Assembly: GCF_004341205.1 (NCBI RefSeq)
Contig: NZ_SLUL01000008.1
Coordinates: 1 to 64,000, forward strand
Length of the DNA: 64,000 nt
DNA from: Thermolongibacillus altinsuensis
Lineage (GTDB): Bacteria > Bacillota > Bacilli > Bacillales > Anoxybacillaceae
Direction: 5' to 3'
Positions 30,679-51,010 of the stretch are shown one piece after another. The position numbers and the translations under genes were made by a program. Numbering within the stretch: position 1 is the stretch's first letter; the number at the start of each line of letters is the position of its first letter. Below the pieces are notes generated by a model, which saw only the letters and a list, made by a program, of their open reading frames with translations, ran no database searches and was not told the DNA's origin.

Positions 30679-33601
30679 TTATAATCCGCATTTCAACTGC
30701 GCACCGCAGCTTGTGCATGTGTTGCATCCGCCGATTTCTTCAACGGTTCCCTCGCGGCAAACCGGACAAATGTTGCCGACTTCTGAACCGATCGTCACAT
30801 CCGTAGCACGCAAGTCTTGAATCGTATCAACGAGAACGACCGGGCGTTTTTCGTTTGTTTCTTCAGGAAGAAGCTCAAGCTGCTCTTCTACGGTGTTTTC
30901 TTCCGCTTTTAGCGTCAATACTTGCGCATCCCGGCTTCCATCGACATAAACCGTTCCGCCTTTTGCGCCGCCTTTCCATAGACGCTCGTACACTTTTTGG
31001 ACTTGCTCAACCGTATAACCTTTCGGAGCGTTAACGGTTTTCGAAAGGCTTGAGTCTACCCAACGTTGAATGATGCATTGCACATCCGCATGCGCTTCCG
31101 GCGATAAATCCATCGCTGTAACAAACCAAGGCGGCAAGTTGTTTGGATCCGCTTCTGGATGTTTGTCCAAATATTCTTGGACAATGTCCGCCTTCACTTC
31201 AATAAATTTGCCGAGTCGACCGCTTCGGTAGTAAGAGAAGGAGAAGTATGGTTCAAGTCCTGTAGACACGCCGACCATTGTCCCAGTGGAACCTGTCGGA
31301 GCCACGGTCAGCAAGTGTGAGTTGCGAATGCCATATTTTAAAATATCTTGGCGAATATCTTCAGGCATTCTTTTCATATAGCCTGTGTTAATGAACGCTT
31401 CACGTAATTTTCGTGTTTCTTCTTCCGTTTGGCCGATGAGGAATGGGAAGCTGCCTTTTTCCTTCGCCAGTTCAATCGATGCGCGATAGGCAGTGGTCGC
31501 AATCGTTTTAAACAATTCGTCGACAAGTTTATTTCCTTCTTCCGAACCGTACACTTTTTCGCAATAAATCAACAAGTCCGCCAATCCCATGACGCCTAAG
31601 CCGATTCGGCGTTCGCCAAGCGCTTGTTTTCTATTTTCTTCAAGGAAATAAGGTGTCGCATCAATCACATTATCTTGCATTCTTACACCAATTTCGACTG
31701 TCCGCTTTAATTTTTCATAGTCGACAACTTTCTTTTCTTTGTCAACCATATTCGCTAAGTTGATCGCTGCCAAGTTGCATACAGAATATGGTGGAAGTGG
31801 TTGTTCACCGCACGGATTGGTTGCGACAACCTTTTGTCCGTACGCTCGTGCGTTCGTCATTTCGTTGGCGTTGTCGATAAAGAAGATCCCCGGTTCAGCC
31901 GAATACGTTGCGCAAATGTTGATAAGTTTCCAAAGCTCCCTTGCGCGGATTTTGCGGTAAACGCGAACGCGATAACCCATCTTTTCCCATTCGCGCACAT
32001 CGCCAACTTCATGCCATTTTTCGTTGTAAATGCGCATTTCTTCTTCTGAATACGTTTCTACATCCGGGAAGCGCAGTTCATATTCTTTATCCTCTTCGAC
32101 CGCCTGCATAAACTCTTTCGTCAAGCAAACGGAAATGTTCGCGCCTGTTAAAAAGTCCGGATTGTGCACGCTGTATGTGCCGCCTGTGCGCAATTTTTCT
32201 TCGGCTTCTTTAATAATTTTCTCGGTGAAGCCGCCGTAGCCCGGCACGTTTTTATAATTTACAATCGCTTGGTACATCTCTCGTTCTTGTTCGGTTAGCG
32301 GCGTAAATTTCAGCTTATCTTGAGCAGCTTTTTTAATCGCTTCATCTTCCATGTTTTCAATCAAATAACGTAAAATACGCGGATTTTGCATTTTTGAAAT
32401 GATAAACTCAATAATGTCCGGATGCCAGTCCGCCAGCATGATCATTTGAGCGCCACGCTATTTGTTACTCACTCGTCATTCGAGTGGGCTAGGTCATTTC
32501 TGCCTAGCTCTCATGCTTTCGCATGAGATCGGACTATATCATCAAAGAGTGAAACACTCTTTGTCTCGCGCTCTATAACGACGTTACCGTTCGTTATAGT
32601 CTACTCCTTCCTTAGCCATAAGCCTTAGGAAGTTTCGATAGTCTCTGAACCTTCATCTCCGTTTCCAGAGATGCTTGGCTGCTGGTCGCCCATTGTTGCA
32701 TCCAACTTGTTTTTAAACCGTCACGCTTGCCGTCACCGGCTACGTTGTGGTCAAGTTGGCTTTAGGGGGTTCCAGCAATTCGCGAGATTTTACTCCCGCC
32801 GATGGCGCTACGTTAACGGGAGCCACCTTGTTCAACAAGATGGGTTAATTTAGCAATGTCATCAAGCCATGAGACGGACCCGGACGATTTGCCGTTCACT
32901 CCGCGCGCTAACGTGTTGCGTGGACGCAGCGTTGAACCGTTTGTGCCGACGCCGCCGCCGCGGCTCATAATTTCCATGACTTGTTTCCGATGCTCAGAAA
33001 TTCCTTCGCGCGAATCTTTTACAAACGGCATCACATAGCAGTTAAAATACGTCACTTCCGTACCTGAACCGGCACCGTATAAAACGCGTCCCGCTGGAAC
33101 GAAATTCAAACTGACCAGTTCTTGATAAAACTTTTCAAACCATTCTTTTCGCTTTTCTTCTGTTTTTTCAACTGCCGCTAATCCGGTTGCGTTTCGCTTC
33201 GCAATTTGTTCATAAAAAATTTCCAATGGTTTTTCAATGACGTCAAGCGAGCGGACAACAAGGCCTGTTTCCGCCTCTTCACCTTCAAGCACATTTCGGT
33301 ACTCTTCTTCAACAAGCACCTTTGCTTTTTTTTGCTCCCAATCAAGCTCGACAATAAATCCTAGACCGCGAGCTGGAAACTTCGGATCTTCCTTCACCGT
33401 TAAGACAACAAAATCACCGACGCTTAACGTTAATTTTTCCGTATCTTTAAACGCATAGCGGTCAAGCATCACTAAACGAGAAACGCCTTTAAATGTGATA
33501 TGCATATCCGCTGTAATCGGGTGTACTTGCGGAAAAAGGCGAATATCCTCGTTTAATTTTTCAATGTTTACTTTCATTTTTTCAGAAAACGCAACCGTCA
33601 T
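30679..33601 (-). CDS. nrdJ: Adenosylcobalamin-dependent (class II) ribonucleotide reductase, intron-split
   Basis: Two exons, 32816-33601 (262 codons) and 30679-32457 (592 codons plus stop), join to an 854-aa class II reductase that makes deoxynucleotides without oxygen. Exon 1 ends in VEQGGSR and exon 2 starts RGAQM, restoring the conserved GGSRRGAQM. Exon 1 carries TYFNCYVMPF; exon 2 has NPCGEQPLPPYSVCNL and VAPTGSTGTM, and ends with a Cys-rich tail (CPVCREGTVEEIGGCNTCTS). Without splicing exon 1 terminates at a TAA directly after GGSR. B. subtilis has a class Ib enzyme instead. nrdJ, splB and the coiled-coil gene occupy a position between lipM and mntR that is empty in B. subtilis. NrdR-like boxes lie upstream. 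Confidence 0.93.
32458..32815 (-). ncRNA. Self-splicing group I intron in nrdJ
   Basis: This 358-nt insertion interrupts nrdJ in a conserved codon context. The 5' exon end CUCCCGU pairs perfectly with an internal guide GCGGGAG (32793-32799), with the expected U-G pair at the 5' splice site (P1). The intron ends in G (AACAAATAG), the omega-G. Core elements are recognisable: TTCAGAGACTAT and the later GATATAGTCC form P7; CCAACTTG/CAAGTTGG forms a P5-type stem; CAAAGAGTG/CACTCTTTG a P8-type stem; CTCATGCGAAAGCATGAG is a GNRA-capped P9-type hairpin. There is no open frame for a homing endonuclease. Subtype assignment is not attempted. Confidence 0.9.
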
Positions 33602-39200: not shown

Positions 39201-39366
39201 TCACCTGAAAGTTTCCCTATGTTGCCATAGGTTTTCCTCGTGGGTGGTTCACGTTCGTGAACGCTCTCCAGAGCCGCGTCAAACAAGAGTTCTTTTGCCT
39301 GAGAGATTCGCCCAACGGCTTGCTCCTTCGGCGCTACAAAATTGTAGTCTCTCCCCTTGTTCTCAT
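39184..39366 (-). ncRNA. Tandem glycine riboswitch
   Basis: Two aptamers are visible on the minus strand. Aptamer 1 runs from GGGGAGAGAC through GCGCCGAAGGAGCAAGCC to AATCTCTCAGGCAAAAGAAC. Aptamer 2 runs from CTCTGGAGAGCG through ACCACCCACGAGG to CTTTCAGGTGAAAGGACAGAG. The paired conserved GAGAG/CTCTCAGGC features, followed by a terminator and gcvT, identify the gcv switch, which activates glycine cleavage when glycine is high. Confidence 0.93.
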
Positions 39367-49125: not shown

Positions 49126-50229
49126 TTATTTAAAAATATCGCCCGAGTCGATTTGAACGTTTTTTTGCTGAAGCATCACTTGAAACGAAGCCCCGATTCC
49201 GCCATCCATAATGAGCGAACGAATGGCCCGATTATGCCGGCTTTGTTCCGAAAATGGATTCGGATCATGATGTTCAATGAAATAATGTAAAATGCCCGCT
49301 TTAAGCAAAAATTGATCTTGCCGCCATAAATCAACATACGTCCAACCGACTTTTTCTCCATAATAGCGCAGCGCATCCCATTGAATGTGAGTCGTCAAAT
49401 CCATCTCTCCCGGACGGAAAAGCAGATCATCGATGAGACGATGCTTATAATAACCTCGCAAACTACCGCGTTTTCGAGCTGGCTCCTTCCACTCTTCATC
49501 TGTATAGCCATAATCAACCGTAAAAATGACCGCCTTCTCTAAATGTTGATCCAAATCAAAAATAAACTGCTTCATCGCTAACGGCACTTCAAATCGCTGG
49601 CCATTATTTAAGGAAATGTTTCGCTCGCGCAAATAGCCGATGATTTCCTTGTTTTCAAGCGGAATCTTTTGCTCGGTCAATCCGTTTTGCTCGAAAGTAA
49701 TGAAGCATTCATATAACTGTTCATTTTCTTTTTCAATGACATGAACCGGAAAGGCGTCAAATAATTCATTGCTGAAAACAATTCCCGAAAAACGAGAAGG
49801 CAATTGATCGATTCGCTCCAATAATTGCACATTTTCAGCAAACATTTGCAGCATTTCTTGCTGTTTTTGGCGATGATACGGACTCACTTCGATTAAAAAA
49901 TACGTGCCGCTTGCAAATGTTTCCGGCGACAGACGTTTCCATTCTTCTAAAACAGCGCGCGCAAAGCGCCCTGTCCCCCCGCCTATTTCGCATATAAACG
50001 GCGGAATTTTTTCTGCTTCGATCAGTTGAACAAATATTTTCGCAAACAATTGCGCAACAACATTTGAAACGTTGCTTGTCGTAATAAAGTCGCCAGCGCG
50101 TCCGATTTTTTCTTCGTTTCTCATATAATATCCGTACTGTTCATCATATAAAGCAAGCTGCATATATTGTGCGTAAGAAATGCGCTTATACAAAGACGAT
50201 TCAATTTTTTTTCGAATGTATTCCACCAT
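49126..50229 (-). CDS. MidA/DUF185-type SAM-dependent methyltransferase
   Basis: The 367-aa protein matches the MidA (NDUFAF7) family: RISYAQYMQLALYDEQYGYY, GDFITTSNVSNVVAQLFA, CEIGGGTGRFARAVL (SAM motif I) and IVFSNELFDAFPVHVIE. C-terminal GGIGASFQVMLQQK is also typical. In mitochondria the homologue methylates a complex I arginine; bacterial substrates are unclear. Its promoter shares a perfect palindrome with an opposite promoter. Confidence 0.9.
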   Translation of the reverse strand: MVEYIRKKIESSLYKRISYAQYMQLALYDEQYGYYMRNEEKIGRAGDFITTSNVSNVVAQLFAKIFVQLIEAEKIPPFICEIGGGTGRFARAVLEEWKRLSPETFASGTYFLIEVSPYHRQKQQEMLQMFAENVQLLERIDQLPSRFSGIVFSNELFDAFPVHVIEKENEQLYECFITFEQNGLTEQKIPLENKEIIGYLRERNISLNNGQRFEVPLAMKQFIFDLDQHLEKAVIFTVDYGYTDEEWKEPARKRGSLRGYYKHRLIDDLLFRPGEMDLTTHIQWDALRYYGEKVGWTYVDLWRQDQFLLKAGILHYFIEHHDPNPFSEQSRHNRAIRSLIMDGGIGASFQVMLQQKNVQIDSGDIFK

Positions 50230-50256
50230 TTTTGTTTTTACACCCTTTTTTCACTA

Positions 50257-50307
50257 TTGACATAGTGTTAAATTTGTTATATTGTTAAGCTAGTAGCTTA
50301 ACAATAT
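50257..50307. promoter_or_regulatory. Overlapping divergent promoters on a 29-bp perfect palindrome
   Basis: A perfect palindrome with 14-bp arms (50279-50292 and 50294-50307) around G50293 has core TTGTTAAGCTA-G-TAGCTTAACAA. On the plus strand TTGACA (50257-50262) precedes TATATT (15-base spacing) or TATTGT (17-base spacing). On the minus strand TTGTTA and TATAAC are 17 bases apart and straddle the palindrome, facing the MidA gene. It looks like an operator for a dimeric repressor controlling both directions. It does not match Fur, PerR, Rex or GlnR spacing. Confidence 0.55.
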
Positions 50308-50373
50308 CCCCTCCCATTATAGGAATAGAACATCCCCCAAACCCCCTTCTCGTAGGAGAGAAGGGCTTTTTTT
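50290..50373 (+). ncRNA. Candidate C-rich small RNA
   Basis: A short plus-strand transcript of about 85 nt is predicted from the promoter at 50257-50285 to a terminator at 50344-50373. No open frame is present. It contains three C-rich single-stranded stretches (ATCCCCTCCCATT, ACATCCCCCAAACCCCC), which resemble ribosome-site-targeting C-rich motifs of Firmicutes sRNAs such as FsrA and RoxS. Identity to those RNAs is not claimed. Expression is inferred only. Confidence 0.4.
50344..50373 (+). terminator. Plus-strand terminator with no plus-strand gene upstream
   Basis: Perfect 8-bp stem CCCTTCTC/GAGAAGGG with a six-base loop, followed by CTTTTTTTA on the plus strand. On the minus strand, the direction of yqgX, no T-tract follows, so it fits a plus-strand transcript better. 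Confidence 0.7.
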
Positions 50374-50377
50374 ATTT

Positions 50378-51010
50378 TTAAAAGCCATTCAAAAACGGAT
50401 TGGTTTCCATTTCATTCATTAACGTTGTCTCTGGACCGTGTCCCGGTAAAACGACGGTTTCTTCCGGTAGCTGCAGCAAGCGCTCATGAATGCTTTGCAG
50501 TAATTGATCGTGATTTCCTCCTGGCAAATCCGTACGTCCGATGCTACCTGCAAACAATACATCTCCTGAAAAAACCGCACCTAGTTCTTCGCAATAATAC
50601 GATACACTTCCCGGAGAGTGTCCCGGCGTTTCAAGCACGCGAAGTGAAAATTCTCCAATCGTCAACGTTTGTTCACCATCAAGTAAATAATCAGCCGGTT
50701 TCACTTTTATTTCTTGTCCCATAAAAAGGAGAGAACCGTTTAACCATGCGTCGTTAAGCCAATCTTTCTCATTTTTATGTACATAGACAGGCACATTCCA
50801 TCGTTTACGCACATCGTCGACTGCTCCGATATGGTCAAAATGGGCGTGCGTTAAAAGCACCGCAAGCGGCTTCCATCCTTGGCTGGAAATATAGCTTACC
50901 AACTTCTCTCCTTCGCTTCCCGGATCAAAAATCAAACACGTATCATTCGGATGAACAAGCACATAGGCATTCGTTTGCAGCGAACCTAACGGAATTCGTT
51001 CCCATTTCAC
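50378..51010 (-). CDS. yqgX: MBL-fold hydrolase, glyoxalase II-like (YqgX)
   Basis: The 210-aa metallo-beta-lactamase fold enzyme has LLTHAHFDHIGAVDDVR, VLETPGHSPGSVSYY, VFSGDVLFAGSIGRTDLPGG and VLPGHGPETTL, giving all zinc ligands. It is related to hydroxyacylglutathione/bacillithiol thioester hydrolases; the physiological substrate is uncertain. It matches B. subtilis YqgX by position. Confidence 0.93.
   Translation of the reverse strand: MKWERIPLGSLQTNAYVLVHPNDTCLIFDPGSEGEKLVSYISSQGWKPLAVLLTHAHFDHIGAVDDVRKRWNVPVYVHKNEKDWLNDAWLNGSLLFMGQEIKVKPADYLLDGEQTLTIGEFSLRVLETPGHSPGSVSYYCEELGAVFSGDVLFAGSIGRTDLPGGNHDQLLQSIHERLLQLPEETVVLPGHGPETTLMNEMETNPFLNGF

What the first reader, a model, noticed from the sequence alone, without database searches (positions are those of the whole stretch)
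50279..50307. Perfect 29-bp palindrome embedded in overlapping divergent promoters
A 14-1-14 perfect palindrome covers the -10/start of a plus-strand TTGACA promoter and lies between the -35 and -10 of a minus-strand promoter for the MidA-type methyltransferase. A perfect dyad of this length is very unlikely by chance and fits an operator. It does not match the common Firmicutes operators I could compare (Fur, PerR, Zur, Rex, GlnR).
Basis: partly seen in the sequence, partly recalled or inferred. Interest (0 to 1): 0.72.

Follow-up and report, generated by a model that had tools for sequence, protein, structure and literature searches.

The report
Unlisted small RNA gene with respiratory operator
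The perfect palindrome is real but looks like a one-lineage accident at the start of a conserved small RNA gene, whose control site, a little upstream, also sits in front of genes for oxygen respiration and iron-sulphur cluster assembly in many Bacillus relatives.

Summary
The 29-bp palindrome exists exactly as described, but it is not a conserved operator: only the window has 14/14 paired positions, the 40 aligned relatives have 3-12, and 10 of 41 loci differ in spacing. It straddles the -10 box and 5' end of a C-rich, about 80-nt small RNA gene (50292-50371, + strand) with its own terminator. The region is found in all 37 same-family genomes; a covariance model finds it in 69 of 397 order genomes. 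It lies beside yqgX in 88 of 89 loci, and without midA in 6. Rfam has no matching family. The conserved dyad lies 30 bp upstream on the -35 box: TTWWCACTAT-N4-ATAGTGWWAA (50248-50271). In 20 genomes it occurs 76 times against 13 for the reversed control. Of 57 non-sRNA sites inspected, 26 lie at cydA, qoxA, ba3-oxidase, ctaA/ctaB, resA, sdhC, odhA, sufC or Fe-S carrier genes. In the own genome the two other sites are at cydA and ctaA/ctaB. Best reading: a RoxS-like riboregulator inside an unassigned respiratory regulon. Transcription, binding factor and mRNA targets remain untested.

The parts
50248..50271 (.). operator-like dyad TTTTCACTAT-TGAC-ATAGTGTTAA centred on the -35 box; fits TTWWCACTAT-N4-ATAGTGWWAA with 0 mismatches
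   Evidence: same motif upstream of respiratory and Fe-S genes in 20 genomes
50257..50262 (+). -35 box TTGACA of the sRNA promoter
   Evidence: present in all 41 loci
50280..50285 (+). -10 box TATTGT, 17-nt spacer
   Evidence: alignments
50292..50371 (+). predicted small RNA, about 80 nt (start inferred from -10 spacing and from where conservation begins; end at the terminator T-run)
50308..50315 (+). C-rich motif 1, CCCCTCCC, predicted single-stranded
50330..50341 (+). C-rich motif 2, ACATCCCCCAAA, predicted largely single-stranded
50344..50372 (+). intrinsic terminator: 8-bp stem then T-run; 3 of 8 pairs show double-sided changes among 41 loci
49126..50229 (-). MidA-type methyltransferase gene (Methyltransf_28), divergent neighbour
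50378..51010 (-). YqgX-type metallo-hydrolase gene, convergent neighbour of the sRNA

Best explanation
The stretch 50248-50376 is a sigma-A-type promoter driving a conserved, C-rich, probably trans-acting small RNA of about 80 nt that ends at an intrinsic terminator abutting yqgX. A dimeric transcription factor (unidentified) binds the dyad over the -35 box. The same dyad marks genes for terminal oxidases, heme A synthesis, ResA, succinate and oxoglutarate dehydrogenases and Fe-S assembly, so the sRNA belongs to a respiratory/redox regulon. Most likely mechanism: the factor represses the sRNA by covering the -35 box; when it lets go, the RNA's CCCCUCCC and AUCCCCCAAA stretches pair with G-rich ribosome-binding sites of mRNAs, as RoxS and FsrA do. 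Shown here: sRNA gene anatomy and conservation, operator motif, concentration of respiratory genes at the motif. Inferred: transcription, repression, redox signal, base-pairing targets.
For: Non-coding conservation in all 37 same-family genomes, with -35, -10, RNA 5' end, two C-rich motifs and terminator conserved, and indels clustered in the -10-to-start spacer, between the C-rich motifs and in the terminator loop. Covariance model: 69 of 397 genomes, 32 of 135 genera. Next to yqgX in 88 of 89 loci, kept without midA in 6. Little but the terminator folds, leaving C-rich stretches open as in RoxS (PMC4409812, passages read). Motif: 76 sites against 13 reversed-control sites in 20 genomes; 26 of 57 inspected non-sRNA sites at respiratory, heme A, TCA or Fe-S assembly genes of 9 kinds. 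In the own genome all 3 motif sites are the sRNA, cydA and ctaA/ctaB. The sRNA site is centred near -33, over the promoter, whereas odhA and sufC sites are centred near -51 and -61 to -78 by promoter guesses.
Against: No transcript was seen. Covariation of the two arms of the -35 dyad is not significant: 412 of 2000 permutations reach the observed value, and counts on A1 and A2 do not exceed shuffles. Part of the conservation is the -35 box itself. 28 of 57 inspected sites are at genes with no evident link, and 3 more (BrxA, CDGSH, redoxin) fit only loosely. In genomes without a detected sRNA the motif excess is smaller (26 against 9). No conserved mRNA target emerged. The factor is unknown.
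Confidence: 0.7

Rival explanations
1. The 29-bp palindrome is itself an operator for a factor acting on the + promoter and on midA.
For: Perfect dyad not expected by chance; relatives in the same family keep 8-12 of 14 pairs, and pairing over all 41 loci is above slid controls (75% of cells against 23-52%); weak minus-strand promoter in the window.
Against: 14/14 only in the window; spacing between arms changes in 10 of 41 loci; no covariation (score reached by 491 of 500 shuffles); mismatches fall in the middle so the longest unbroken arm in relatives is 2-5; the right arm is conserved as RNA 5' end where the left arm changes.
Confidence: 0.08
2. The -35 dyad is just conserved promoter context and its resemblance to sites at respiratory genes is coincidence.
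For: Arm covariation not significant; the core TGAC is fixed by the -35 box; half of the inspected genomic sites have no evident link.
Against: 76 against 13 sites, and 26 of 57 at one functional class of 9 gene kinds; the suf dyad has perfect arms with different central bases in 5 of 7 genomes of three genera and one mismatch in the other two.
Confidence: 0.15
3. The region is a cis-element or encodes a small peptide rather than a trans-acting sRNA.
For: 28 of 41 loci have a start codon followed by at least 10 codons within the RNA.
Against: No downstream + strand gene; the terminator precedes yqgX, which is on the other strand; the reading frame is absent from the window and 12 other loci (13 of 41); in a case looked at by eye it runs into the terminator hairpin; indels inside the RNA are not multiples of three.
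Confidence: 0.07
4. The dyad-binding factor is the AirSR/YhcYZ-type oxygen-sensing two-component system (NarL-family regulator).
For: Such a system, with a cysteine-bearing GAF-like sensor, is in the own genome (L312; the AirSR/YhcYZ name is recalled); NarL-family sites are dyads (recalled).
Against: Sensor orthologues (E < 1e-40) are lacking in 9 of 20 genomes that carry the dyads and present in 12 of 20 without a detected sRNA.
Confidence: 0.05

Closest known systems
RoxS/RsaE (Rfam RF01820)
   Same: Short C-rich riboregulator with C-rich regions, own promoter and terminator, redox/respiration-linked control (ResDE; PMC4409812, abstract and passages read)
   Different: Different sequence and locus: the own genome has a true RsaE match elsewhere (G000:C4:40495-40615, 100.6 bits); the window RNA does not match RF01820 at E <= 5; its operator-like dyad is over the -35 box, not the 8-nt site near -65 described for roxS
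FsrA and IsrR iron-sparing sRNAs
   Same: C-rich sRNAs acting on iron-containing and respiratory proteins (PMC9410917, PMC12607789: listing and start of abstract only; FsrA recalled)
   Different: Those are iron/Fur-controlled (abstract start and recall); no Fur-type box was noted here by eye, and Rfam gave no match
Rex regulon
   Same: Dyad operators at cydA and other redox genes; 4-nt centre
   Different: Rex site is TTGTGAAW4TTCACAA (PMC2883068, abstract); here CACTAT-N4-ATAGTG, the GTG/CAC elements point the other way
ResD/SrrA regulon
   Same: Overlapping gene set (ctaA, ctaB, cyd, resA; recalled)
   Different: No published dyad of this form was found; ba3-oxidase promoters here carry a separate TTTGTGAA or similar element beside the dyad (its identity as a ResD box is recalled)

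Membership tests
RoxS/RsaE (RF01820) | covariance-model match above gathering score | tested here: not met
   no RF01820 hit in 50000-50600 at E <= 5; true member elsewhere in the genome
Any Rfam family | match above gathering score at this locus or in divergent homologues | tested here: not met
   window: only a group I intron and a glycine riboswitch elsewhere; 10 divergent loci: none
Trans-acting C-rich sRNA (functional class) | own promoter, intrinsic terminator, conserved intergenic RNA of 50-150 nt | tested here: met
   sequence features and conservation only:
Trans-acting C-rich sRNA (functional class) | accessible C-rich stretches | tested here: met
   by prediction only: the consensus fold has only the terminator stem; the window's minimum-energy fold adds one weak 3-bp helix
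Trans-acting C-rich sRNA (functional class) | base-pairing with conserved mRNA targets | tested here: inconclusive
   complement scans of 8 genomes found G-rich ribosome-binding sites but no target shared widely
Trans-acting C-rich sRNA (functional class) | RNA is transcribed | not testable with these tools
   no expression data at hand
Rex operator | TTGTGAA-N4-TTCACAA | tested here: not met
   neither dyad at the locus has this form
Fur, PerR or Zur operator | 7-1-7 repeats of their known type (recalled) | tested here: not met
   by eye on the sequence only; motifs recalled, no matrix scan run
AirSR/YhcYZ regulon | regulator present wherever the operator is | tested here: not met
ResD regulon | ResD binding at the dyad | not testable with these tools
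   ResD presence was not searched for; binding needs an experiment
Respiratory regulon defined by this dyad | motif over-represented and concentrated at respiratory genes | tested here: met
   76 against 13 sites; 26 of 57 inspected non-sRNA sites

The most novel reading that the evidence does not exclude
TTWWCACTAT-N4-ATAGTGWWAA is the operator of an unrecognised global respiration/Fe-S regulator of Bacillales, acting as activator at oxidase, heme A, TCA and suf promoters and as repressor at this sRNA, so that the sRNA and the regulator form a feed-forward loop that switches respiratory proteins at two levels.
Probability: 0.35. Interest if true: 0.8.

Novelty: new member of a known kind. Interest (0 to 1): 0.6.

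Why it matters
RoxS/RsaE is described as the only trans-acting sRNA besides 6S shared by Bacillus subtilis and Staphylococcus aureus (PMC4409812, abstract). A second widespread C-rich sRNA family in Bacillales (Anoxybacillus, Geobacillus, Parageobacillus, Domibacillus and others), tied by its operator-like dyad to oxidases, heme A and Fe-S assembly, would add a post-transcriptional arm to respiratory control, and gives one concrete DNA probe with which to fish out the responsible transcription factor.

Tried and rejected
Palindrome as conserved operator: rejected on conservation, spacing and pair counts. Palindrome as an RNA hairpin: the inferred RNA start falls inside it, so the left arm is not transcribed; the predicted RNA folds almost only at the terminator. 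Known RNA family: PyrR (E 2.4) and EF3314_EF3315 (E 0.25) were far below gathering. AirSR/YhcYZ as regulator: rejected by co-occurrence. Arm covariation of the -35 dyad as proof of dimer binding: tried, not significant. suf link as universal: the clear suf dyad is only in three genera of the family (7 genomes) and absent from the own genome; Geobacillus-like genomes (g4) have a looser TTTTCAC-N9-GTGAAAA there in several cases. mRNA targets by near-exact complement: in the own genome TGGGAGGGGATA lies about 54 nt before a gene for a LuxR-type protein, not seen as a target in other genera. The exact palindrome core in viral contigs: none. Literature: 10 searches, including motif strings and yqgX with sRNA, listed no paper that I recognised as describing this sRNA or operator (only the listed rows were seen; one search held 72 papers, 15 listed). 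The Bacillus methanolicus transcriptome paper (PMC4342826, passages read) reports 24 intergenic sRNAs, but its table of unnamed ones is in a supplement I could not read, so a prior listing there is possible.

Sampling notes: of the 76 forward motif sites, 18 are the sRNA itself (in G143 and G233 the sRNA site is beyond two mismatches); 57 of the other 58 were inspected (the one in G143 was not printed). Of the 26 forward sites in genomes without a detected sRNA, 17 were inspected: 3 at sufC, ba3-oxidase and NorB genes (NorB checked, the other two by sequence likeness) and one at a diverged form of the sRNA between midA and yqgX (L304). Gene assignments use Pfam/NCBIfam for the genes counted, except L258/L259 (same sites as the sufC loci L094/L104 found by the sufC family search); L354 was scanned by Pfam only (ABC ATPase) and called sufC because its sequence is nearly that of L282.

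Full report
Observation. The palindrome at 50279-50307 is exact, 14-1-14. In the window it is the only perfect inverted repeat with arms of at least 12 and a loop of 0-1, and 40 Markov resamples of the window gave none. The + strand TTGACA-17-TATTGT is present.

Conservation. A DNA search with 50200-50400 found a match in 42 of 61 genomes, including all 37 of the same family; one of the 42 (G039) matches only 23 nt. Alignment of 41 loci (37 of the family plus four others) shows a conserved block running from a TTTTCACTATTGACATAGTG stretch, through a 17-nt spacer and a TATTGT/TATCGT/TATATT-like -10 box, a variable spacer with indels, then TAGTAGCTTAACTATATCCCCTCCCAT..ATAGAACATCCCCCAAA and a hairpin with a T-run. 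No conserved protein frame explains it. Its layout is that of a small RNA gene. The consensus fold has only the terminator (the window's own fold adds one weak helix), and three of its eight pairs show changes on both sides.

The palindrome in relatives. Counting the aligned columns, the window has 14 of 14 pairs, the other 40 loci have 3 to 12; the segment is not 29 nt long in 10 of 41; the longest unbroken arm around the centre in a relative is 5. Pairing is well above slid controls (75% against 23-52%), so a partial symmetry between the -10 box and the RNA 5' end is real, but there is no sign of covariation. The window differs from its nearest relatives at a few bases that complete the dyad. 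I therefore read the perfect palindrome as an accident of this lineage.

Spread and setting. A covariance model of the promoter and RNA finds it in 69 of 397 order genomes and 32 of 135 genera. In 89 distinct loci, yqgX lies beside it in 88 (the last, L221, is cut by a contig end) and midA in 82; six uncut loci lack midA but keep the RNA. Named holders of the core include Geobacillus, Parageobacillus, Anoxybacillus, Domibacillus antri and Bacillus ectoiniformans. Rfam has no family for it; the own genome has its RoxS/RsaE elsewhere.

The other dyad. Around the -35 box lies TTTTCACTAT-TGAC-ATAGTGAAAA and variants such as TTAACACTAT..ATAGTGTTAA, TTATCACTAT..ATAGTGATAA and TAAACACTAT..ATAGTGTTTA; 9 of 88 loci (5 of 42 distinct sequences) have all ten pairs (one further locus, L231, was left out as too short). 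Symmetry is strong (86% of cells paired in A1 against 32-59% when slid), but a permutation test of arm covariation is negative (412 of 2000), so the alignment alone does not prove dimer binding.

Genome scan. The motif TTWWCACTAT-N4-ATAGTGWWAA with up to two mismatches occurs 76 times on the forward strand in 20 sRNA-bearing genomes, against 13 for the pattern read backwards. Eighteen of these are the sRNA. Of the other 58, 57 were inspected (28, 27, two suf sites). Twenty-six lie upstream of or between respiration-linked genes: cydA 5, ba3-type oxidase subunit II 5, ctaA/ctaB 4, sufC 4, qoxA 2, odhA 2, resA 2, sdhC 1, Fe-S_biosyn (A-type carrier) 1 (families). Three more (bacilliredoxin, CDGSH protein, redoxin) fit loosely; 28 have no evident link, among them sites within coding sequence. 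In the window's own genome the motif occurs three times: at the sRNA (0 mismatches), upstream of cydA (1) and between ctaA and ctaB (2). In 20 order genomes without a detected sRNA the excess is smaller, 26 against 9; 17 inspected sites there include sufC, a ba3 oxidase, NorB and a diverged copy of the sRNA.

The suf case first drew attention: seven of seven genomes of three related genera have TCACTAT-N4-ATAGTGA (five with perfect arms, two with one mismatch) at the same place upstream of the suf promoter while the four central bases differ. By promoter guesses the dyad is centred near -61 to -78 at sufC and -51 at odhA, and over the core promoter at the sRNA (near -33, from the spacing) and at two cydA genes (-32, -25). 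This suggests activation at the first and repression at the second, but promoter guesses in AT-rich DNA are weak and I treat this as a hypothesis.

Who binds? The motif is not the Rex site (PMC2883068, abstract). An AirSR-like system in the own genome does not track the motif. ResD remains possible but its described site at roxS is an 8-nt element near -65 (PMC4409812, passages). A CRP/FNR-family gene has a site about 90 nt upstream in one genome (L307), which is only a lead.

Verdict. What is there is a family of C-rich small RNA not held in Rfam, with an operator-like dyad shared with respiratory genes. The gene anatomy is strongly supported; the regulon link is well supported by enrichment; the mechanism (repression of the RNA over the -35 box, base-pairing of C-rich stretches with ribosome-binding sites) is inferred from class resemblance.

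Noticed in passing
window 32510-32856 (-): Group I intron (RF00028, 82 bits) between two parts of what looks like a ribonucleotide reductase gene (ORFs 32813-33601 and 30679-32445; gene name from recall).
   Followed up: partly
window 39277-39366 (-): Glycine riboswitch (RF00504, 70 bits).
   Followed up: no
L082 (G000:C12 near 52061) and the other sufC upstream regions fetched: sufC promoters share a conserved tail like TTATAAGATTGTAATGAGAATAAAATGAGAAT with two TGAGAAT repeats across the order; the binder is not known to me.
   Followed up: no
G000:C14:35222-35233 (L143): Exact complement of the sRNA motif UAUCCCCUCCCA about 54 nt upstream of a gene for a 544-aa protein with a LuxR-type helix-turn-helix.
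   Followed up: partly
L304 1501-1640: Diverged copy of the sRNA (promoter dyad TTAACATCATTGACATAGTGTTAA, then a CCCCCTCCCCCT stretch) between midA and yqgX in a genome where the model found none.
   Followed up: partly
L366, L368 near 1101; L277 near 1301, L369 near 1101: Two unannotated, membrane-like protein genes with motif sites kept in two genomes of one genus; no Pfam/NCBIfam match for those scanned.
   Followed up: no
L279, L286, L288, L291, L305: ba3-oxidase promoters carry a TTTGTGAA-like element about 20 nt downstream of the dyad.
   Followed up: no
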